The translations under genes and the position numbers were made by a program. A DNA stretch of 64,000 nucleotides from Pseudomonas cremoricolorata (lineage in GTDB: Bacteria; Pseudomonadota; Gammaproteobacteria; Pseudomonadales; Pseudomonadaceae). The notes beneath the pieces were generated by a model, which was not told the origin of the DNA, ran no database searches, and saw only the letters and a program-made list of their open reading frames with translations. How positions within the stretch are numbered: the first letter of the stretch is position 1; each line of letters starts with the position of its first letter. Location of the stretch: positions 4,092,001 to 4,156,000 of the forward strand of contig NZ_CP009455.1 in assembly GCF_000759535.1 (NCBI RefSeq), in the 5' to 3' direction. Positions 9,545-20,340 of the stretch are shown one piece after another.

Positions 9545-10007
9545 GCGTATCTGCGCCTCGCATAGCCGCCCTTGTTCGCGCTCCTATCGCCCTATCCCGA
9601 GGTATTCGACTCAGTGATTGCACTTGTCTCTACTCGCCGCGCTGCTGTGTAGAAGTGGCCGCACTCAAGTGCAATGACTTGGGTGTAGCCGGGCGGCTCC
9701 ACCGGAGGCGGCTGGTAAGCGAGCACGAATAAAGGGCTGATTGGCGCGCAGTTGATACCTGTTGAATCAATGCCACGACCGGCAGTGGTGCCGAAACAAT
9801 TATTGCTGTGCGATCGAGTTCAGCCGGTAACGTTTTGTCTTTAAAAAGCCACGACTACAACTAAGGAACCTTCCCACAAGTTGTTAGGAACGCGTCTGAA
9901 CTACATGGAAGTGGTTCCCCGGTATGGTCCTTGGCGCTCTGTTCGATGCGCCCTGCAAGTGCTCGATGACAGGGCGCTGCCCAAAGGACTGTCCCGCAGG
10001 AGACCGC
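9545..10007. other. Long intergenic region before vgrG with inverted repeats
   Basis: 463 bases without a credible gene. It contains a perfect 10-base inverted repeat ATTGCACTTG/CAAGTGCAAT (9617-9626 and 9666-9675) with a weaker CTAC/GTAG pair inside, and a short palindrome TTGAT-N9-ATCAA (9752-9770). These may be an mRNA end for the upstream operon and a regulator site for vgrG respectively. I looked for a sigma-54 promoter of the GG-N10-GC type and did not find one. Confidence 0.45.
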
Positions 10008-12749
10008 ATGAGCAACGCGCAGGAAGTGCGCTTCACCTTCAGCACCCCGGCCGATGGAGCAATCGCCTTCGAGGTCGTGTCGTTCGAACTGACCGAGGGC
10101 ATCAGCGAGCTGTACCGGCTGGAAATCGAGCTGGCCAGCTTCACCGACCAGGCCGATTTCGCCGCCCTGCTCGACCAGCCCGCCGTGCTGACCCTCTGGC
10201 AGCAGCAACGCCCGGTACGCCATGTCCACGGCCTGATCAGCAGCTTCGAACAGGGCAAGACCGGCCATCGCCGCACGCGCTACCGCGCCGTGATCGAACC
10301 GCAACTGGCCCGCGCCGCCCTGCAATCGGACTGGCGCATCTTTCAACTGCGCTCCGTCCCGCAGTTGCTCGAGGCACTGTCTGGCGAACGCCGCTGGGGC
10401 ACCCTCACCCAGTACCTGATCGACCCGCACCAACCTCGTGAGTTCTGCGTCCAGGCCGGTGACCTGGACCTGGATTTTTACTGGCGCCTGTGCGCCGAGG
10501 AAGGCCTGCTGTCGATTTTCCAGCACAGCCAAGACAGCCACACATTGATCCAGACCGATCGCATCCACCAGCTCGGCGCGCTGGAAGGCGAGCCGGTGCG
10601 CTATGTCGCCAACCCGGGCGGCCTGCAGCAGCAACCCTGCCTGCAGCACTTCACCTACCGCGAGCAGGTGCGCAGCAGCCGCCAGGTGCAGCGTGATTAC
10701 ACGTTCACCCATCCGCGCTACAAGCACGAACACGTCATGTTGCCGCGGCATCTGGGCAATCAGCGCGCTGCCTACGAACGCTACGACTACCCCGGTCGCT
10801 ACAAGCATGACCACGCGGGTAAACCCTTCACCCAAACCAGAATCGACGCCCTGTTCGGCGATACCCGCGTGGCCGAGGTCGCGGGCGACGATGCCCGCCT
10901 GCAACCCGGCATTGCCTTTGAACTGACCGGCCACCCCCGCGCGGACATGAACATCGCCTGGCGGCCGTTGCGTGTCACCCATCGAGGTCGCCAGTTCACG
11001 GCGCTGGAGGAAGATGCCGCGCAGGCGGACGTCGGTGCGTCCTACACGCTCACTGCCACCCTGATACCCGCCGATGTCCAATGGCACGCCCCTGCCCGCC
11101 CGAAGCCTGTGATCGACGGCCCGCAGATGGCCACGGTGGTTGGCCCACCGGGTGAGGAAATCTACTGCGACGAACACGGCCGCGTGCGCGTGCAGTTCCC
11201 TTGGGACAGGCGCGGCCAGGACGATGAAAAAAGCTCATGCTGGGTGCGCGTCACCCAGGCCTGGGCGGGGGCCAACTGGGGCCACATGGCGATTCCGCGC
11301 ATCGGCCAGGAAGTGTTGGTGAGTTTTCTTGACGGCGACCCCGACCAACCGATGATCACCGGGCGCAGTTATCACATTGTCAACCGCCCGCCCTATCGCC
11401 TGCCTGATTTCAAGGCGCTCAGCCCGATCCGCAGCAAGGAGCACCACGGCAAACGGCACAACGAACTGCGCCTGGACGACACCACCGGGCAGATCAGCGC
11501 AGCGCTGATGAGTGATCACGATCACTCGGCGATACACCTGGGCTACCTCACCCACCCGCGCCACGCTGGCGGCAAGCCTCGGGGACAAGGTTTCGAGCTG
11601 CGCACCGACAGCCATGGCGTGCTGCGTGCAGGTGGCGGGTTGCTGCTCACCACCGAATCCCGCATCCGAGCCAGCGAACACCACACCGACCTCGGCGAAA
11701 CCGCCGAACGTCTGAAGATGGCGCAGGAGCATCATGCCACCTTCGCCAGCGAAGCCCGCGCTCACCTCGCCCAGGACCTTGGCGATCAGGATGAAGTGGG
11801 CGATGCTCTGCTGCTCCAGCACGACGCCATTCGTGGCAACGCCAGCAATCCTCAAGCCAATCGTTTTCCCGAGCTGGCCGACCCGCAATTGGTGCTCGCC
11901 AGTCCGACCGGGATCGCCACCAGCACAGCGCAATCGACCCATATCGCCAGCGGCGAACACCTGGGCCTGAGCACCGGCGGCCACACCAGCTTGGCCATTG
12001 GCAAGCGCCTGCTGATCAGCGCCAGTCGCGGCGTGCGGCAGTTCGTGCAGAGCATGGGCTGGCGCCTGGTGGCGGCGTCAGGCGACATCGACCTCAAGGC
12101 CCTGAAGGACAACATCAACCTGCTGGCCAAGCTCAACGTCACCGCAACCGCCGAACGCATCACCCTGAGTGCAAAGGAAGAACTGATCATCCAGGGCGGC
12201 GGCAGCAGCAGCACCTACAACGCAAGCGGCATTCACCACGCCACGGCGGGCCAGTACACCACCCACGCGACGGATTTCATCTACAAAGGTTCGAAAAGCC
12301 AGGGCGCGGTGTTTCCCGGGGACATCCAGGCGAGCGCTGGCGAGCTTGAATTGTTCCAGCACTATGCCAGCCAGCATGCCTATGAGACGGCTGACTACCG
12401 CGTGGAAGACGCATTGGGTCAGGTGTTCAGCGGCAAACTGAACGGTGAAGGCTTCGCCGGCGTGGCCGGGCTTGCCACCGGGCCGGCAAGCGCGGCATTG
12501 GGCGCCGACCCGACCGACACCTGGTCACACGCCAGTGCAATTCAACGCTCGGACGAGTCCGGCGCCAGTCCCGACGCCGTCGACCCTGCCAGCGAGGCCG
12601 CAGAGCAACTTGCGACAACGCTGCTCTGCGGCCTTTCGACAGCCAGTCGAGCCGGCCTGAAAAACCTGTTCAGGCAACCCGAAGCCACTCATGCCCCTCA
12701 GCAATCGCCGGTGTCAGCCGACGCGCTCATCGGGAGCACGCGAGCATGA
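10008..12749 (+). CDS. vgrG: Type VI secretion spike protein VgrG with C-terminal TTR-like extension
   Basis: VgrG trimers form the puncturing tip of the type VI secretion needle and carry effectors out of the cell. The 913-residue protein has the gp27-like part (residues about 1-370), the gp5 OB-fold with VRVQFPWDRRG near 390 and a gp5/DUF2345 beta-helix region to about 770. From about 778 a transthyretin-like module follows (ELFQHYASQHAYE, then YRVEDALGQVFSGKLNGEG and GLATGPASAALGADP), the type used to recruit a cargo effector. The start at 10008 follows CAGGAGA and replaces a longer frame. The stop overlaps the rhs start by ATGA, so the two are translationally coupled. No other T6SS structural gene is in the window, so this is an orphan vgrG island. 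Confidence 0.92.
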   Translation: MSNAQEVRFTFSTPADGAIAFEVVSFELTEGISELYRLEIELASFTDQADFAALLDQPAVLTLWQQQRPVRHVHGLISSFEQGKTGHRRTRYRAVIEPQLARAALQSDWRIFQLRSVPQLLEALSGERRWGTLTQYLIDPHQPREFCVQAGDLDLDFYWRLCAEEGLLSIFQHSQDSHTLIQTDRIHQLGALEGEPVRYVANPGGLQQQPCLQHFTYREQVRSSRQVQRDYTFTHPRYKHEHVMLPRHLGNQRAAYERYDYPGRYKHDHAGKPFTQTRIDALFGDTRVAEVAGDDARLQPGIAFELTGHPRADMNIAWRPLRVTHRGRQFTALEEDAAQADVGASYTLTATLIPADVQWHAPARPKPVIDGPQMATVVGPPGEEIYCDEHGRVRVQFPWDRRGQDDEKSSCWVRVTQAWAGANWGHMAIPRIGQEVLVSFLDGDPDQPMITGRSYHIVNRPPYRLPDFKALSPIRSKEHHGKRHNELRLDDTTGQISAALMSDHDHSAIHLGYLTHPRHAGGKPRGQGFELRTDSHGVLRAGGGLLLTTESRIRASEHHTDLGETAERLKMAQEHHATFASEARAHLAQDLGDQDEVGDALLLQHDAIRGNASNPQANRFPELADPQLVLASPTGIATSTAQSTHIASGEHLGLSTGGHTSLAIGKRLLISASRGVRQFVQSMGWRLVAASGDIDLKALKDNINLLAKLNVTATAERITLSAKEELIIQGGGSSSTYNASGIHHATAGQYTTHATDFIYKGSKSQGAVFPGDIQASAGELELFQHYASQHAYETADYRVEDALGQVFSGKLNGEGFAGVAGLATGPASAALGADPTDTWSHASAIQRSDESGASPDAVDPASEAAEQLATTLLCGLSTASRAGLKNLFRQPEATHAPQQSPVSADALIGSTRA

Positions 12750-15700
12750 CCCCACCCCCAGCCCCGCACACCGCCGAAACCGCCATCGCCCCCATAACCG
12801 ACATCGCCCTCGAAGACATCACCGAGGCCGCCAACCATGTCGACCTCTGGCTACGGCAACTAAGCGACAACCACCTGACCCTGGCCACGCTCAAGCAGGC
12901 CGCCGAATACATCCCCATCGCCAACAACATCATGGCGGCGGTGGATGCCGTTGGCGACATCATCGCCCTGGCCGAGCGCGAGCAGAACGACCCACTCGAT
13001 TGGGTCAGCCTGGGCATCAACCTGATCGGCATCATCCCCATCCCGCCGGCCCTGGCCTTTGCCCGCAAGAGCCTGAGGCCCACCCTGCACCTGGTCCGCC
13101 AGCAGCTCAAGGCCACCCCCAGGGCACCTCTTGGCAATGGCCTGGTCACCGTGCTGGCCGGACACATGAACGCCACGATCCTTGGCGAACTCGAGAACTT
13201 CGTCACCCAGGCCCGGGCACGGCGATCGTCCTGGCGCTCGCAGGCGGCATCGAAGATTTTCTGAACGGTCAGTTGAAGCCCAGCCCGGTGGTCCAGGACG
13301 AGCACGCTTCCCTGCTCGACACCCTGGTCAGACACGCGACGCTGCCGCTGGAAGTGGCCACCGTGGCCAGCCTCAATCGCTTGTCCACACTGCTTCCCGC
13401 TTCTACCCGAACCCTGGGCCTGACCTATGCCCAGCGCCTGCGCCAACTGGCGACCGAGGTGGCACCGAACCTGCGCAGGCTGGCCAACGCCGACACCCCG
13501 CACAGCATTGGCCACTTGTTGTCCATGCTGGCGCAGGCGGCCAAGCACAAGCGCACCCACCTCTCGATCAACATTCCGCCGGCCGGCACCAAGCAGGTCA
13601 GGCATGTCACCCGCCAGCAGCAACTGGGCGCCATCGGCCGGCAGCGCCCGGCGCGGCAGGACCCAGGCGCTGCGAAGAACGGCGCCTGTTCGGGCACCTG
13701 CAACTCGATCAGCTTCGCCCGCGGCTCTGAGCAACTGGTGCATACCGACTTCATCTTGCCAGGGCCGTTTCCCGTGACCTGGAGCCGCAATTACCGCTCC
13801 AGCCAGGCGGCCCTGGACGACGGCCCGCTGGGCGCGCGCTGGATCAGCCCCTTCATCGTGTTCTTCGAAGTGATCGAAAACACCGTGCGCCACCAGGCCG
13901 CCGATGGCCGCAGCCATGACTACCCGCTGCCCAGGGTGGGCAAGTTCCACCATGACCCGGTCGAGGACATCGTCCTGATGCGCACCGGCGAGCGCACGCT
14001 GTCACTGGCCCGGGGCTACCGGGTCGAAGAATGTTACGAGCAGGGCGGTGATCGCTTCCGCCTCTGTGCCATCCGCCAGCGCGGCGGCGCGTGTATCGCG
14101 CTGCATTACGAGCACAGCCACCAGGGCGTGCAGGTGCTCTCGGACCTGCTCACCTACCAGGACGAGCGCCTGCACCAGCATATCCGCACGCGCCTCGATG
14201 CCAGCGGCCGCATCGAAAGCCTGTGGTCGATGCACGACGGCGAGCCGACCCGGCAGTTGGCGGCCTACCAGTACAGCGCCGAAGGCGACCTGGCATCGGC
14301 CCGCGACGAACACGGCCGGCAATGGACCTACGCCTACCAGCACCACCTGCTCACCCGCCACACCGACCGCACCGGCCGCGGCATGAACCTGCAGTGGCAG
14401 GGCACCACGCCCGACGCCCGGGCCATTGCCGAGTGGGCCGACGATGGCAGCCACGCGGTGCGTCTGGCCTGGGACGCCACTATCCGCATGACCTGCGTCA
14501 CCGACGCGCTGGGCCACCAAACCCGCCACTACTACAACCGCGACGGCTACACCTACCGCATCGTCCATCCCGACGGCCTGGAGGAATGGTTCTTCCGCGA
14601 CGCGGCGATGAATGTGGTGCAGCACGTGCACCGCGATGGCGGTATCGACCACTACACCTACGACCCGCGCGGCAACCTGCTGCAGCACACCCGCGCCGAC
14701 AACTCCTCGGTGCACCACGCCTATGACGAGCTCAATCAACGCTTCAAGACCCGCGATGCCGAGGGCGGGCTGTGGAAGTACGACCATGACCCGCGCGGCA
14801 ACCTCATCCAGACCCAGGACCCGCTGGAGCACAAGACCGAGTACGTTTACGACCGTGACAACCGGCTCACCGCGATCATCGAGGCCAATGGCACCGAGAA
14901 GAAGCTCGCCTACGACCGCGACGGGCGCCTGAGCCACTACATCGACTGCTCCGGCAAGACCACTCAGTGGCACTACAACGCCCTCGGCCAACTGCGCAAA
15001 CTGACCAACGCGGCCGGCGAGGTCACCCTGTATCAGTACGAAGCCGGCCACCTGAGCCAGGTGATCTACCCCGACAGCACCCGTGAACAGTTCGAGTACG
15101 ACGCCGAAGGCCGCCTGCTCAGCTTCACCGATGCCCTGTATCGCAAAACCGCGTGGACCTACGACGAAGCCGGCCTGATCCGCCAGCGCATCAACGCCAA
15201 CGACACCCGGCTCACCTACCACTGGGACGCGCTCGGCCAGTTGGTGCGGCTGTACAACGAGAACGATAGCCAGGCGACCTTCAGCTACGACCCGCTGGGC
15301 CGGCTGCTCGCCAAAACCGGCTTCGACCGGCAGACCACCCACTACCGCTACGCGCGTGGCAGCGACCTGCCCACGCACCGCGCCGATGGCGAGCGCATCA
15401 CCCACTTCGAGTACGACGCCATGGGCCGGCTGGTACGGCGTCAGGCCGAGCGAGCCGACGGAACAGACCCAGACAGCGAAACTTTCGCCTACGACGGCAA
15501 CGGCCGCCTGCTGCTCGCCCGCAACAGCGCCTGCAAGCTGCAGTGGGTCTACGACCTGGCCGGCAACAACACCCGCGAACACCAGCACTTGAGCTACCTG
15601 ACGCAGCCCCAGGTCGCCGTCTTCACCCACGAATACGACGCCCTCAACCAGCGCATCGCCACCACCCACCCGGACGGCCACCGCGTCAGCTGGCTGACCT

Positions 15701-17247
15701 ACGGCAGCGGACACCTGCTGGGCCTGAAATTCGACGAGCGCGAACTGCTCAGCTACCGGCGTGACGACCTGCACCGGGAAATCACCCGCGAACAAGGCAA
15801 TGGCCTGATCCAGCGGCAACAGTGGACACCCAACGGCCAGTTGCGCGAACAGATGCTGGGGCCGCGCGACACCCACCACCTCACCGCGCTGCGCCGCTAC
15901 CGCTACGACGACAGCGGGCAGCTCACGGCCCTCGAGGACCTGAGCCGCGGCGATATCCGCTACCGTTACGACCCCATAGGCCGACTGCTCGAAGCGAGCC
16001 ACTTTCGCAGCCAAGAAACCTTCGCCTTCGACCCGGCAAGCAACCTGCTCGACCCCGACGCCCCACCCGGGCCCAACCCCTACGCCCCAGTCAAGCTGAG
16101 CGACAACCTGCTGCGCAGCTACTGCGGCAACCAGTACCGCTACGACGCACGCGGCAACCTGCTCGAGCGCATCGAAGCAGGCCAACACGGCCACTTCCGC
16201 TGGGACCTCCACAACCGCCTGCGCCGTTATGAAGATGACCGGCTGATCGTCGAATTCAGTTACGACGCCCTCGGCCGTCGCCTGTACAAGAAATCGAGGT
16301 GCAAATACCGCGAAGACCCCCAGGCCCCAGCGCGCTGGAACGAATACATACGGCGCAAGCGCGCCGAAACCCCCGACAGCGGCCTGACCGGCTACCTGTG
16401 GGACGGCGACACCCTCGCCATCGAGTGCCGCGTAGACGAACAGCAGCATGGCTTCACCGTGCACTACGTGTTCGAACCCGGCACCTTCGTGCCCGTCGCC
16501 CAGGCAGTGATCAACACCCCGCTCACACTGATCCCCCAGCCCTTCTACGGCGAGTACTACAGCACCGCCCGCGACCCGGTCTGGCAACACAAACCGACCC
16601 CCGGGAACGTCGATACCTTCGCCTGGTACCAGTGCGACCAGCTGGGCACCCCGATGGAGCTGACCGACACCGACGGCCAGATCGCCTGGAGCGGGAACTA
16701 CAAAGCCTGGGGCCAGGCCACCGAAGAGCGCAGCGACACCGCCAAGCGGAAAAACATCCACAATGCGTTACGCTTTCAGGGGCAGTACTTCGATGTCGAG
16801 ACGGGGTTGCATTACAACCGGTATCGATATTACGACCCGCAGGTTGGGCGGTTCATTGGCAAGGACCCGATTGGGTTTGCGGGTGGGGTCAATGTTTATC
16901 AGTATGCGCCGAGTCCGGGGAATTGGGTTGATCCGTTAGGGTTAGCAGCAAATAGAGGAAGATTCCAAGCACAAGGGGCAAAGCTGGAGGAATCTGTTTC
17001 TTGGAATCAAGACGAACCCATCACCGTCTCAGATGGAAAGAGGCTAATGGGAGAGCTAAAGGCAAAACTTACTGATCGAGACCTGACTCTAAGGCGCACA
17101 GCTTTCGAAAAGGCCGAGCGATTTATAGACGATGCCTGCAGATGCGGGGGAGTCAGCGCTCAGACATCTCGCTCATTTAAGGTGAAAGATACAAAGGGCG
17201 AGCGCGTCGATGTAGAAATTATAAATGGCGTAGCATTCAAGGAATAG
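12746..17247 (+). pseudogene. rhs: Rhs polymorphic toxin, interrupted by a single-base frameshift
   Basis: Rhs proteins encase a C-terminal toxin in a YD-repeat cocoon and are delivered on VgrG. Translation starts at the ATG overlapping the vgrG stop (MTPPPAPHTAETAIAP) and gives a sensible N-terminal region with a hydrophobic stretch (WVSLGINLIGIIPIPPALAF), then loses sense after ELENFVTQA. From about 13217 the coherent protein continues in the -1 frame (TAIVLALAGGIEDFLNGQL) through many YD repeats to the cleavage-type motif DPIGF...DPLGL (ending at 16944). One missing G in the CCCGGG at about 13210-13216 would explain this. The full product would be about 1,500 residues. No PAAR domain is fused; a separate PAAR gene lies at 19170. 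Either a sequencing error, a recent mutation or a slip site. Confidence 0.82.
16945..17247 (+). other. Rhs C-terminal toxin domain 1 (uncharacterised)
   Basis: The variable tip released after DPLGL: about 100 residues beginning AANRGRFQAQGAKLEESVSW. GC content and codon use drop sharply here, as expected for an exchangeable toxin module. I do not recognise its activity; conserved features shared with toxin 2 at 17749-18057 are RGRFQAQG, LEESVSW.QD, a Lys/Leu-rich helix, FxKAERxxxxAC, and the ERVDxEI...AF end. Its neighbour at 17253 is the presumed antidote. Confidence 0.7.
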
Positions 17248-17252
17248 AAAGT

Positions 17253-17609
17253 ATGCATGAAGACTATTTGGCAAGTGCTATCAGCTACCACATGCTTGAG
17301 GATTGCTTTGCGAGAACATTCAAGGAAGCCATTGAGGCGTACGGTCTATCCGGGAATTTTATTACGCCTTATTATCATACGGCATTTAACAATGGGCAGC
17401 CATTCCGTGATGCAAATCCGATATTTTCGGCAAAGAGTTTGAAATCGAGCAACACCATTAGAATTATCATTGAAGAAGATAGCAATAATGTCTCAGTGGT
17501 TGAGGAAAACAAAGATAACGGACTTGAAACCATTGCTTTCGGAGGGATAAAAAACCTGAATGAGCTGTTAGAAAGCTTGCGCCATTGGATAGCCAATTCA
17601 GGAAGTTGA
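17253..17609 (+). CDS. Presumed immunity protein for Rhs toxin 1
   Basis: A 118-residue acidic protein starting six bases after the rhs stop with an AGGAATAG box, in the low-GC toxin region. Position and composition mark it as the cognate immunity protein that protects the producer and its siblings. It has no signal peptide, so it acts in the cytoplasm, which implies a cytoplasmic toxin target. The segment FITPYYHTAFNNG...FRDANPIFS is clearly shared with the second immunity gene (18058-18422), which supports the pairing of both with homologous toxins. The molecular activity it blocks is not known. Confidence 0.72.
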   Translation: MHEDYLASAISYHMLEDCFARTFKEAIEAYGLSGNFITPYYHTAFNNGQPFRDANPIFSAKSLKSSNTIRIIIEEDSNNVSVVEENKDNGLETIAFGGIKNLNELLESLRHWIANSGS

Positions 17610-17640
17610 CCTTCACCCCCCTACGTCAAAAGCAATCTAT

Positions 17641-18057
17641 TATCCACAGACAGGGCGGTGCATAAGCAAGTACCCGATTGGGTTTGCGGGTGGGGTTAAT
17701 GTTTATCGGTATGCGCCGAGTCCAGTAAACTGGATTGATCCGCTTGGTTTGGCCGCACACAGAGGGCGGTTCCAAGCCCAAGGAAAAACGCTTGAGGAAT
17801 CGGTCAGTTGGGATCAGGACTCTCCTTTAAGCGCATCTGATGCACAAGCTAAGATGGAAGAGCTTAAAAGAAAATTGTCGAAAAAAGATCTAAAGCTTAG
17901 ACAAGGCGCATTCAGCCGTGCAGAACGATGGGTTGAGCGAGCCTGCAATCGCGGCGGAATATATGCTCAGAGAAGCCAGACTTTTATGGTGGATGGCACT
18001 AGACACGAGCGTGTGGATATAGAGATTAGAGCCGGAAAGGCATTTGTGGAGGACTAG
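17641..18057 (+). pseudogene. Orphan rhs 3' end with toxin domain 2
   Basis: The stretch 17673-17723 repeats 16866-16916 with two mismatches in 51 bases and encodes PIGFAGGVNVYRYAPSPVNWIDPLGL in frame with the toxin that follows; before it a decayed YPQTGRCISKY matches YDPQVGRFIGKD of the active gene. The toxin domain (17749-18057, about 102 residues, RGRFQAQGKTLEESVSWDQD...) is homologous to toxin 1 over its length. There is no start codon or ribosome-binding site of quality, only a TTG within the core remnant. It is a displaced, silent tip that could be swapped back into the rhs gene by recombination through the shared core sequence. Confidence 0.78.
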
Positions 18058-18422
18058 ATGTTTGAAGACTTCCTGTGCAATGAGGAAACATACGACAACC
18101 TTGAAAGATTTTTTCGTCCTATTTCGAGGGTTACATAAAAAAAATGCGCATCAAGCCCGATGAGTTTGTTAGCCCTTACTATAATGCCAAGTACGCCAAT
18201 GGGGCTAAAATAAGAGAAGCCAATCCGATTTTCTCGGTGCGCAATAAGAGGACCGGCAACGCCTTCAGAATCGTCATATACAACCAAGTTCGGGGATATG
18301 CAAAGCATTACAAGGAAATTGAAGGAGGCAATGAAGTATGCCTTGTCATAAAAATAAAACATTTAAAAAGAGCACGGAAAGATCTTATGCGCTGGGCAAG
18401 CCTACAAGTACACAATACTTGA
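18058..18422 (+). pseudogene. Immunity gene 2, frameshifted
   Basis: The ATG at 18058 directly follows the toxin 2 stop. The frame MFEDFLCNEETYDNLERFF is interrupted by TAA at 18136, but one frame over the sequence continues SYFEGYIKKMRIKPDEFVSPYY and then NAKYANGAKIREANPIFS to 18422, aligning along its length with immunity protein 1. The shift falls at the six-T run 18109-18114. A shorter 92-residue product from the ATG at 18144 is possible but lacks the N-terminus. It is probably a decayed immunity gene unless the base loss is an assembly error. Confidence 0.7.
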
Positions 18423-18517
18423 GCAAAGTAAACTTAAAGCCATCATGACTCAGGGTACAATCAGTTGAAGCAATGGTCTTAGAGCTAGATAAATCACCGC
18501 AACTTCCAACACTGCTA

Positions 18518-18634
18518 GGCTCTGTACGACAAAATTTGAGACATCGGCGAGACAAGGCAATGGCGGCTCCGAATGGGCGACTCAGCTGTTTTCAACGCAG
18601 CATAACAAAGTATCAAATTTTTCCGTACAGATTC
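18518..18634. mobile_element. MITE-like element or insertion-sequence remnant
   Basis: A 117-base segment bounded by 21-base imperfect inverted repeats: GGCTCTGTACGACAAAATTT (18518 onward) against CAAATTTTTCCGTACAGATTC (18614-18634), with about 17 of 21 positions matching. The left end is preceded by CTA, giving CTAGGCTCTG, which recalls IS5-group ends that target CTAG or TA. There is no transposase reading frame inside. The family assignment is tentative. Confidence 0.4.
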
Positions 18635-18687
18635 TGTCAATACGTGGACGAAATCTTTCACAGCTTCATAGTAAGTACTGTCATGCC

Positions 18688-18753
18688 GAGACGGGGTTGC
18701 ATTACAACCGGTATCGATATTACGACCCGCGGGTTGGGTGGTTCATTGGCAAG
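18688..18753 (+). repeat. Third copy of the rhs core 3' end (fragment)
   Basis: 66 bases identical to 16798-16863 of the main rhs gene except for two substitutions, encoding ETGLHYNRYRYYDPRVGWFI and then GK. The frame continues out of homology as LEKTTKRGALKLAVYRAW and stops near 18822. It marks an older displaced tip whose toxin has been truncated. Confidence 0.8.
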
Positions 18754-18803
18754 CTTGAAAAAACAACTAAGCGTGGGGCACTGAAGTTGGCAGTGTACAG
18801 AGC

Positions 18804-19061
18804 ATGGCTCTCGACGAAATAGTACTACTTGCAGCACTTGACACTCTGCACGCTCTGAGAAATTTCTTCTTATGTGCTGCACAAGAAATGACAGCGCATA
18901 TCCATCTTCAGGATCGGTGCGATAATTTGTGGACTGAAGAGCATGTAGACATCATCCTTGCAAACAAGAAAACAATCAAAATCAGCACAGAATTAATCAG
19001 TAATGCCATTCATGTAAACTATTTCGAAATGAAAGCGAAAACAACATTTCGTTATATCTAA
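18804..19061 (+). CDS. Hypothetical 85-residue protein after the third rhs fragment
   Basis: A low-GC reading frame starting MALDEIVLLAALDTLHALRN with a mostly helical, cytoplasmic-looking product. It sits where an immunity gene of the third, truncated toxin would be, between an rhs core fragment and the PAAR gene. No good ribosome-binding site precedes its ATG. It may be an orphan immunity gene or a chance frame in AT-richer DNA. Confidence 0.35.
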   Translation: MALDEIVLLAALDTLHALRNFFLCAAQEMTAHIHLQDRCDNLWTEEHVDIILANKKTIKISTELISNAIHVNYFEMKAKTTFRYI

Positions 19062-19169
19062 GTCTATTTATGGCTGGCAACACCTTTCTCATCCGACACC
19101 CCAGCAAATCAAACTTCGAAATCGAAATTCTTCAACTAAAGCTGCGCTCCCCGATAAGGATTCCTGCCC

Positions 19170-19433
19170 ATGAACAAGATCATCCGCCTCGGCGACACCA
19201 CTTCCCACGGCGGGGTGGTACTCAGCGCCATTTCTCACACCGACCTCAACGGCAAGCCCATCGCCGGCAAGGGCGACAAGGTTCTATGCCCGCTCTGCAA
19301 GGGTGAGTTTGCGATTATCGAGGGCAGCAGCACCTATCACGTCAATGGCACGCCTGTCGCACTGGAAGGGATGAAGACGGCCTGTGGTGCGAGTCTGATT
19401 GCCGGTGCCTGTCATGCCAAAGTGCACCTTTGA
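19170..19433 (+). CDS. PAAR domain spike-tip protein
   Basis: An 87-residue protein that is essentially one PAAR domain: IRLGDTTSHGGVVLSAIS at the N-terminus, a central CPLCKGEF pair of cysteines, and the closing GMKTACGASLIAG. PAAR proteins cap the VgrG trimer and sharpen the type VI needle, binding one metal ion through conserved His/Cys residues. The codon use is again GC-rich, unlike the toxin region just upstream. AAGGA precedes the ATG. In this island VgrG, Rhs cargo and PAAR are separate polypeptides; the PAAR gene ends the island on this side. Confidence 0.88.
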   Translation: MNKIIRLGDTTSHGGVVLSAISHTDLNGKPIAGKGDKVLCPLCKGEFAIIEGSSTYHVNGTPVALEGMKTACGASLIAGACHAKVHL

Positions 19434-19941: not shown

Positions 19942-20340
19942 CCAAGATCCCTCTCTACTGATTTGAACAAGGCGCGGACTGTAACAGACCGTGTCTACCG
20001 ATTGAACCACCCTGCCGCTCTGACTCAACCTGCCCTGACCTCTAATGTGACGGGCTCGTCAATACACACGCCGTTCAATCCATCAGGAAAATTGCGGAAC
20101 GCTATCGTTGTGCCAGCGGTCTAGCTGCATTGAGGAAGTTCCGCAAAGCTGCCCAGTGGATTGTTGCAAGGTACTACAGCGCTCCAAGCACCGGCACTGC
20201 TGTCGCCTGTCCAGGCAACGGCAAAGGTTTCGCGGCCCTTAGCCATGGATGTCCGTGCATCCGCATGCCGTCGTGCAGTGGCTCCAATACCAAAGCCTGA
20301 GCCGTGCAGCTGTGTTGCGCGGACATAAATGGAGCGTGAT
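19942..20340. other. Intergenic region upstream of the dehydrogenase operon
   Basis: About 400 bases without a credible gene. It contains the promoters of the divergent genes on each side and the inverted repeat at 20092-20146. A weakly tRNA-like stretch on the minus strand near 19960-20022 was considered and rejected. Confidence 0.5.
20092..20146. promoter_or_regulatory. Widely spaced perfect 9-base inverted repeat
   Basis: TTGCGGAAC at 20092-20100 and GTTCCGCAA at 20138-20146, exactly complementary, centres 46 bases apart, about 195 bases before the first gene of the dehydrogenase operon. Either two half sites of a looping regulator or the arms of an mRNA hairpin. No regulator gene is adjacent. 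Confidence 0.4.

What the first reader, a model, noticed from the sequence alone, without database searches (positions are those of the whole stretch)
16945..18422. Two homologous Rhs toxin/immunity cassettes in tandem, the second a silent tip
Directly visible: toxin 1 (end of rhs) and toxin 2 (17749-18057) share RGRFQAQG, LEESVSW, FxKAERW-like and ERVDxEI...AF motifs over their whole length, and both immunity genes share FxTPYY...FxxxNPIFS-type segments. Toxin 2 is preceded by a 51-base copy of the rhs core end with two mismatches, so homologous recombination could swap it back. Successive displaced tips are known in Rhs loci, but usually carry unrelated toxins; here the neighbours are divergent members of one uncharacterised toxin family, as though immunity specificity itself had been drifting.
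Basis: partly seen in the sequence, partly recalled or inferred. Interest (0 to 1): 0.75.

Follow-up and report, generated by a model that had tools for sequence, protein, structure and literature searches.

The report
Two related Rhs toxin tips stacked
A Pseudomonas carries, behind one secreted-toxin gene, an older silent copy of a related toxin with its protective gene; the two look like separately acquired members of one unnamed toxin family rather than one copy drifting from the other, and the main gene and the silent copy's protective gene are both broken in this sequence.

Summary
In detail: toxin 1 (16948-17247) and toxin 2 (17755-18057) are 57% identical over 99 residues, the immunity genes are related, and a core-end copy precedes toxin 2. 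Three corrections. (1) Immunity 2 does not start at 18144: its start is 18058 behind GGAGG, and the frame breaks after some 17-19 codons. The 'active' rhs is also broken: at 13,215 it lacks 40 bases that both copies of the sister strain DSM 17059 have. (2) The neighbours are not drifted duplicates: a tree puts them in two subfamilies with kin elsewhere and rejects a joint clade. (3) The stack is three deep: a further core scrap (18688-18754) precedes an orphan immunity-like gene (18804-19061), then PAAR. A second rhs locus, which in DSM 17059 carries a subfamily-2 tip, is deleted to a remnant here. Best reading: ordinary Rhs tip displacement (Jackson 2009), here stacking members of one toxin/immunity family that matched nothing in Pfam, NCBIfam, PHROGs, PADLOC or the PDB in my searches. 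Relatives also occur as free-standing gene pairs in Bacteroidota and beside FRG genes on plasmids. Toxicity and activity are inferred only.

The parts
9924..12749 (+). vgrG (T6SS tip protein) upstream of rhs
   Evidence: TIGR03361 E 1e-154; Pfam Phage_GPD, T6SS_Vgr
12746..13264 (+). N-terminal piece of rhs in its own frame; start overlaps the vgrG stop; stop after 172 codons
   Evidence: 67% identical to residues 60-227 of the single 1571-aa rhs frame of L020; 40 bases missing at 13,215 against both DSM 17059 copies
13216..17247 (+). rhs body and core in a second frame, ending in toxin 1 (listed ORF is 12691-17247)
   Evidence: matches L020 from residue 231 on; codon-usage frame switch; RHS repeats and Rhs_assc_core
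16948..17247 (+). toxin 1 domain (attached tip), subfamily 1
17253..17609 (+). immunity 1, 118 aa, open frame
17653..17754 (+). core scrap 2 (copy of the rhs core end) before toxin 2
17755..18057 (+). toxin 2 domain, subfamily 2; open frame, first possible start in frame is TTG 17749
18058..18138 (+). first piece of immunity 2 (ATG behind GGAGG), 26 codons then stop
   Evidence: similar N-terminus in L022 in one frame
18108..18422 (+). rest of immunity 2 in another frame (first ATG 18144)
   Evidence: (profile positions 18-115)
18516..18631 (.). REP-like interspersed repeat (parts recur at 17 other places)
18688..18754 (+). core scrap 3, no toxin behind it
   Evidence: 65 of 67 identical to 16797-16863
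18804..19061 (+). orphan immunity-like gene (weak Imm32, below cut-off); a relative follows an HxHC-type Rhs tip in L068
19170..19433 (+). PAAR protein
   Evidence: PF05488 E 2e-26

Best explanation
This is a T6SS rhs locus with a stack of displaced tips. An rhs gene next to vgrG received toxin1-immunity1 by recombination in its core. Older tips (toxin2-immunity2, then a cassette of which only a core scrap and an orphan immunity-like gene remain) lie downstream without an evident start of their own. Toxin 1 and toxin 2 belong to two subfamilies of one unnamed family of about 98 residues (RGRxQAQG...LEES...ERVDxE) and came in separately; toxin 2 or its kin may have sat at a second rhs locus that this genome has since lost (inferred). 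When the rhs frame was whole, the tip would have been delivered into neighbouring bacteria, with the gene behind it protecting the producer (inferred from position and from known Rhs effectors). The toxin fold is predicted with high confidence as two strands, three helices, three strands; the invariant or nearly invariant R3, R5, Q7, Q9, then E14, S16, then D88, E90 sit at alternating strand positions, so probably on one face. I take it to be a small enzyme acting on RNA or another nucleotide (my estimate 0.45, inferred). Between toxin 1 and 2 strands 1-2 keep 14 of 16 residues, strands 3-5 keep 9 of 18, helices 16 of 35, which fits one activity with separate immunity specificity but does not show it. 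As sequenced, rhs (40-base deletion) and immunity 2 (frame break) are both broken, so the locus looks decaying.
For: Homology of toxins, immunities and core scraps. An immunity-family hit directly behind 31 of 35 toxin or toxin-fragment positions (L063 dropped as the same contig as L028); of the 16 positions whose partner was not in the profile's alignment, 12 hit. Misses: L008, L017, L031, L062 (L031 ends 180 bases after the toxin and may be the other half of L039, same genome). Toxin and immunity distances co-vary, Mantel r 0.82 over 19 pairs. Separate subfamilies. DSM 17059 L019 matches at 95% (core), 96% (toxin 1), 92% (immunity 1), 84% (scrap 2) and stops matching at the tip boundary 17754/17755, with a different toxin there and the match resuming at 19076. 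Second rhs site: flanks at 96% over 1239 and 92% over 5456 bases, with 271 + 75 bases of core left here. GC 0.66 in the core against 0.48-0.49 in the tips and 0.41 in the immunities. AF2 pLDDT toxin 97.3, immunity 90.7. rhs deletion: 40 bases at 13,215 against both DSM 17059 copies, with no other gap in 2,992 aligned bases.
Against: Toxicity, secretion, binding and immunity are untested. As sequenced the main rhs is broken, so nothing may be delivered from this copy. The immunity-2 break rests on one assembly with no close relative to compare (L022 is about 74% at the DNA level). Toxin 2 is only 75% identical to the DSM 17059 tip while the flanks of that second locus are 92-96% identical, so descent from the lost locus is not shown. 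No PDB or BFVD fold match under E 0.001 supports an enzyme class. Mantel distances partly reflect species kinship. Toxins are basic (15 of 16, pI 8.3-9.9), but the partners are acidic in only 11 of 16.
Confidence: 0.75

Rival explanations
1. Local tandem duplication of one cassette followed by divergence of toxin and immunity.
For: Same family, same locus, 57% identity.
Against: Tree: toxin 1 with L019 and L020 (100/99), toxin 2 with L022 (99/94); AU rejects joint clades. Toxin 1 is closer to L020 (73%) and six other loci than to toxin 2; immunity 2 is nearest L022 (43%), not immunity 1 (27%).
Confidence: 0.05
2. Toxin 2 is an archived alternative tip kept for reuse: recombination between core end and scrap 2 deletes cassette 1 and fuses toxin 2 to rhs.
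For: 52 bases with 2 mismatches; toxin 2 frame still open; replacement of an attached tip by an orphan module in Salmonella (Koskiniemi 2014: search listing and its citation only).
Against: Immunity 2 is frame-broken, as is the immunity behind the subfamily-2 tip of P. putida L023; rhs itself carries a 40-base deletion.
Confidence: 0.15
3. The frame breaks are assembly errors; rhs-toxin1-immunity1 is a working effector and immunity 2 a working orphan immunity gene against subfamily-2 attackers.
For: Single assembly; a subfamily-2 toxin exists in the sister strain; an orphan Rhs immunity is protective in Serratia (PMC10539506 section 12).
Against: The rhs break is a clean 40-base absence against two copies, not a short slip, and the only gap in 3,610 aligned bases downstream of the stack is one base between predicted genes. 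I lowered this rival from 0.3 to 0.15. For immunity 2 alone an error stays possible.
Confidence: 0.15

Closest known systems
Rhs C-terminal tip displacement (Jackson et al. 2009, PMC2935791; passages, section 10)
   Same: High-GC core, low-GC tips, core scraps of varying length downstream, silent tips mostly without starts, some frame-broken.
   Different: There, fragments within a locus carry entirely dissimilar tips; here the attached and first silent tip are homologous (57%).
V. cholerae T6SS immunity arrays (Kirchberger et al. 2017, PMC5361080; passages, section 13; first author recalled)
   Same: Successive displacement; homologous immunity alleles in one genome that do not cluster together, hence not duplicates.
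   Different: There effectors are mostly replaced and immunity genes kept; here toxin 2 is still open and its immunity is the broken part.
Serratia Rhs NADase tips and orphan immunity (Hagan et al. 2023, PMC10539506; abstract and outline, section 12)
   Same: Immunity gene of an alternative tip kept behind the current pair.
   Different: Toxin activity (NADase) and protection were tested there; nothing is tested here.
Homogeneous polyimmunity loci (Zhang et al. 2012, PMC3482391; passages, section 39; first author recalled)
   Same: Related immunity genes in one locus.
   Different: Those loci are described as never interrupted by toxin cassettes; this one is.
Snodgrassella alvi Rhs loci (PMC5727410; passages only)
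   Same: Full rhs at the 5' end, then orphaned tips with immunity genes; pseudogenised orphan immunity genes in several strains.
   Different: Many orphan tips there are transcribed; expression here is unknown.

Membership tests
T6SS Rhs effector locus | vgrG, RHS repeats, Rhs-associated core and PAAR in one locus | tested here: met
T6SS Rhs effector locus | one intact reading frame from rhs N-terminus to tip | tested here: not met
   40-base deletion at 13,215; whole in L020, open past it in both DSM 17059 copies
Displaced Rhs tip | core scrap directly before a tip that lacks an evident start | tested here: met
   promoter-like sites in 17200-19200 not above chance, 2 against mean 3.5
Displaced Rhs tip | tip unrelated to the attached one (usual, not obligatory) | tested here: not met
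   57% identity
Toxin/immunity pair | immunity-family gene directly behind the toxin across relatives | tested here: met
   31 of 35 positions
Toxin/immunity pair | toxicity and neutralisation | not testable with these tools
   needs expression assays
Named toxin family (Pfam, NCBIfam, PHROGs, PADLOC) | profile match | tested here: not met
   0 families at E 0.01 for 18 of 18 toxin members in Pfam, NCBIfam and PHROGs; 0 for toxin 1 in PADLOC
Named immunity family | Pfam profile match | tested here: not met
   0 families at E 0.01 for 21 of 21 members; immunity not run in PHROGs
Imm32 (gene at 18804) | Pfam gathering score 27 bits | tested here: not met
   16.8 bits; relative in L023 20.6 bits
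Free-standing two-gene module (relatives in Bacteroidota) | short toxin gene with own ATG followed by the partner gene | tested here: met
   4 of 7 Bacteroidota loci: L032, L033, L034, L036; no such ATG-started toxin ORF was listed for L035, and L037 and L038 have broken toxins

The most novel reading that the evidence does not exclude
One small unnamed toxin fold serves three roles: interchangeable Rhs tip in Gammaproteobacteria, free-standing two-gene module in Bacteroidota, and cargo beside FRG-domain (candidate anti-phage) genes on plasmids. Rhs loci repeatedly collect members of its different subfamilies (window, P. putida W15Oct28, one further Pseudomonas genome, Psychrobacter) because immunity of one subfamily does not cover the other.
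Probability: 0.35. Interest if true: 0.6.

Novelty: new member of a known kind. Interest (0 to 1): 0.42.

Why it matters
If the toxins are active, the locus and its sister strain give natural pairs of homologous toxins with diverged immunities, so one could ask directly how far immunity must diverge before cross-protection is lost. The family matched no profile library searched, has a confident predicted fold without a PDB match, and links interbacterial toxin tips with free-standing gene pairs.

Tried and rejected
Known toxin family: no match in Pfam, NCBIfam, PHROGs or PADLOC. Toxin against PDB sequences: none at E 10 for toxin 1, best 0.29 for the alignment; PDB folds best E 0.2; viral fold library best E 0.04, TM 0.52, an uncharacterised Klebsiella phage protein. 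Immunity 1 against PDB sequences: best 0.009, designed proteins over a stretch of 27-28 residues; alignment best 0.41; folds best E 0.18. Toxin 1 in phage records: no match at E 0.01. Order-level sample: 1 of 390 genomes, the window's own (at most 12 candidates scored per genome). Motif in papers: 0 papers for four spellings. Local duplication: rejected (the groups were named before the tree was seen but after the pairwise identities). L018 looked like noise on translation. The 49 bases between scrap 3 and the 18804 gene leave no room for a toxin domain.

Full report
Setting. The window is G000:C1:4092001-4156000 of a single-contig 4.78 Mb genome. The nearest named relative met in my searches is Pseudomonas cremoricolorata DSM 17059, 93% identical over 3,617 bases downstream of the stack. 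The locus reads vgrG (9924-12749), rhs, toxin/immunity cassettes, PAAR (19170-19433).

Check of the observation. Toxin 1 (16948-17247) and toxin 2 (17755-18057) align without gaps, 56 of 99 identical; the two immunity ORFs share 24 of 77. The core-end copy before toxin 2 is 52 bases with 2 mismatches (counted), or 86% over 98 bases. A second scrap, 65 of 67 identical to core 16797-16863, lies at 18688-18754. This genome holds the toxin at 2 places, both here, plus one chance-level match, E 0.29.

Two broken frames. Immunity 2 is not a gene starting at 18144. An ATG at 18058, five bases after GGAGG (18048-18052), opens MFEDFLCNEETYDNLERFF and stops at 18138; the remainder (profile positions 18-115, 18108-18404) is in another frame. 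L022 has the whole protein in one frame, MFEDYLSSIETYDKLEA..., 120 aa. The rhs gene is broken too: its start 12746 overlaps the vgrG stop, that frame ends at 13264, and the body continues in another frame. L020 has both parts in one 1571-aa frame. Both DSM 17059 copies stay open past this point, 531 and 505 codons, up to where the contigs seem to end. Against each of the two, the window lacks 40 bases at 13,215 and has no other gap (2,992 and 1,457 aligned bases). Downstream of the stack 3,610 aligned bases show a single one-base gap, at 20197, between predicted genes. So the rhs break looks like a real deletion; the immunity-2 break could still be an assembly error.

One family, two subfamilies. 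Relatives came from a scan of genome contigs (22 loci), plasmids (8 records), viral contigs (3 loci: one full, L017 a fragment, L018 noise) and a genus sample (6 of 298 genomes, own included); an order sample gave only the own genome, 1 of 390. In a tree of 24 toxins with open frames, toxin 1 groups with DSM 17059 L019 and UBA4617 L020 (100/99), toxin 2 with DSM 17059 L022 (99/94) and P. putida L023 (93/93). Holding toxin 1 and toxin 2 together costs 57 log-likelihood units (p-AU 1e-7); with L019 p 0.001; with L019 and L022 p 0.0095. Toxin and immunity distances co-vary: r 0.82 over 19 pairs, 0.89 over 12 gammaproteobacterial, 0.92 over 8 Pseudomonas pairs, permutation p 1e-4 each. Loci with broken or partial toxin or immunity, the plasmids and the viral contigs were left out there, and shared ancestry inflates r.

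History of the stack. Window and DSM 17059 L019 match through core (95%), toxin 1 (96%), immunity 1 (92%) and scrap 2 (84%), then stop matching at 17755 (37 of 96 bases) and match again from 19076. DSM 17059 has there a tip with KSQWHAHC (weak Ntox47, E 0.008, below cut-off) and a further core fragment. P. putida L023 has a similar tip with KSQWHSHC attached, then a silent subfamily-2 toxin with broken immunity, an orphan subfamily-1 immunity (45-47% to immunity 1 and the L020 immunity), a gene of the 18804 kind, then PAAR. Kin of the 18804 gene were found in 13 of 298 genomes, own included; in L068 one directly follows a tip with VHAHCQC that is in frame with a core end, so I read it as an immunity gene of such toxins (inferred from one locus). 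The same few cassettes thus appear in different order in related loci.

A lost second locus. DSM 17059 has two rhs copies. The left flank of one (L083) and the right flank of the subfamily-2 tip (L022) lie side by side in the window's genome at about 2.626 Mb, 96% over 1239 and 92% over 5456 bases, with 271 and 75 bases of core between. That L083 and L022 are two ends of one locus is inferred from this synteny. The window's genome has lost that locus. Toxin 2 may descend from it, but is only 75% identical to the DSM 17059 tip.

Recurrence. More than one immunity-family gene occurs in 4 of 34 loci with a toxin hit: window, L023, L030 (Psychrobacter), L058 (flanks differ in length). In L058 the second immunity is 71% identical to the immunity at another rhs locus of the same genome (L059) and 52% to its own neighbour.

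What the protein may do. AlphaFold2 with 18 rows gives pLDDT 97.3: strands 2-9 and 14-21, helices 27-39, 43-48, 50-65, strands 73-78, 86-93, 95-98. Invariant or nearly so: R3 G4 R5 Q7 A8 Q9 G10 L13 E14 E15 S16 W19 ... R49 F53 ... E85 R86 V87 D88 E90. R3, R5, Q7, Q9 and D88, E90 alternate along strands, so probably face one side (inference; coordinates were not seen). Toxins are basic, pI 8.3-9.9 in 15 of 16 and 6.6 in L020; partners have pI under 6 in 11 of 16 and over 9 in 5 of 16, one of the 5 being the truncated immunity-2 ORF. Foldseek found nothing under E 0.001 in PDB or BFVD. An RNA- or nucleotide-directed enzyme is a guess at 0.45. Between toxin 1 and toxin 2, strands 1-2 keep 14 of 16 residues, strands 3-5 keep 9 of 18, helices 16 of 35.

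Beyond Rhs. In 4 of 7 Bacteroidota loci (L032, L033, L034, L036) the toxin is a gene of 101-109 codons with RGR close behind its first Met, followed by the immunity homologue. On a Citrobacter and an Enterobacter plasmid it follows an FRG-domain gene (the Citrobacter one matches PADLOC PDC-S15, E 2e-91, and Pfam FRG, E 8e-21). On viral contig L017 a toxin fragment follows an ORF whose end resembles those FRG genes by eye; it was not scanned.

Known or new. Tip displacement with silent, frame-broken fragments is described (PMC2935791 section 10), as are homologous immunity alleles that are not duplicates (PMC5361080 section 13), an orphan Rhs immunity (PMC10539506 section 12) and the same layout in Snodgrassella (PMC5727410, passages). 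The locus is a new member of a known kind. The toxin family matched none of the libraries searched, and a text search for its motif found 0 papers, which does not show that it is undescribed under another wording.

Noticed in passing
12746-13264 and 12691-17247: The rhs gene behind vgrG lacks 40 bases at 13,215 against both DSM 17059 copies and is split between two reading frames.
   Followed up: yes
G000:C1:2625464-2625806 (L056:5465-5807): Remnant of a deleted second rhs locus, syntenic with the DSM 17059 locus that carries a subfamily-2 tip.
   Followed up: yes
18516-18631: REP-like repeat; parts of it match 17 other places in the genome.
   Followed up: partly
18804-19061: Orphan immunity-like gene before PAAR; kin in 13 of 298 genus genomes, one behind an HxHC-type tip.
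   Followed up: partly
L006:1633-3881, L007:1612-3863: FRG-domain gene, toxin relative and immunity-like gene in a row on enterobacterial plasmids, with a tyrosine recombinase gene nearby.
   Followed up: partly
L032:5995-7139, L033:5995-6844, L034:5992-7060, L036:3886-4675: Free-standing toxin/immunity gene pairs of this family in Bacteroidota.
   Followed up: partly
L069: Immunity-family gene, 18804-like gene and PAAR in a row in a Pseudomonas genome (G018) in which one search found no toxin of this family.
   Followed up: no
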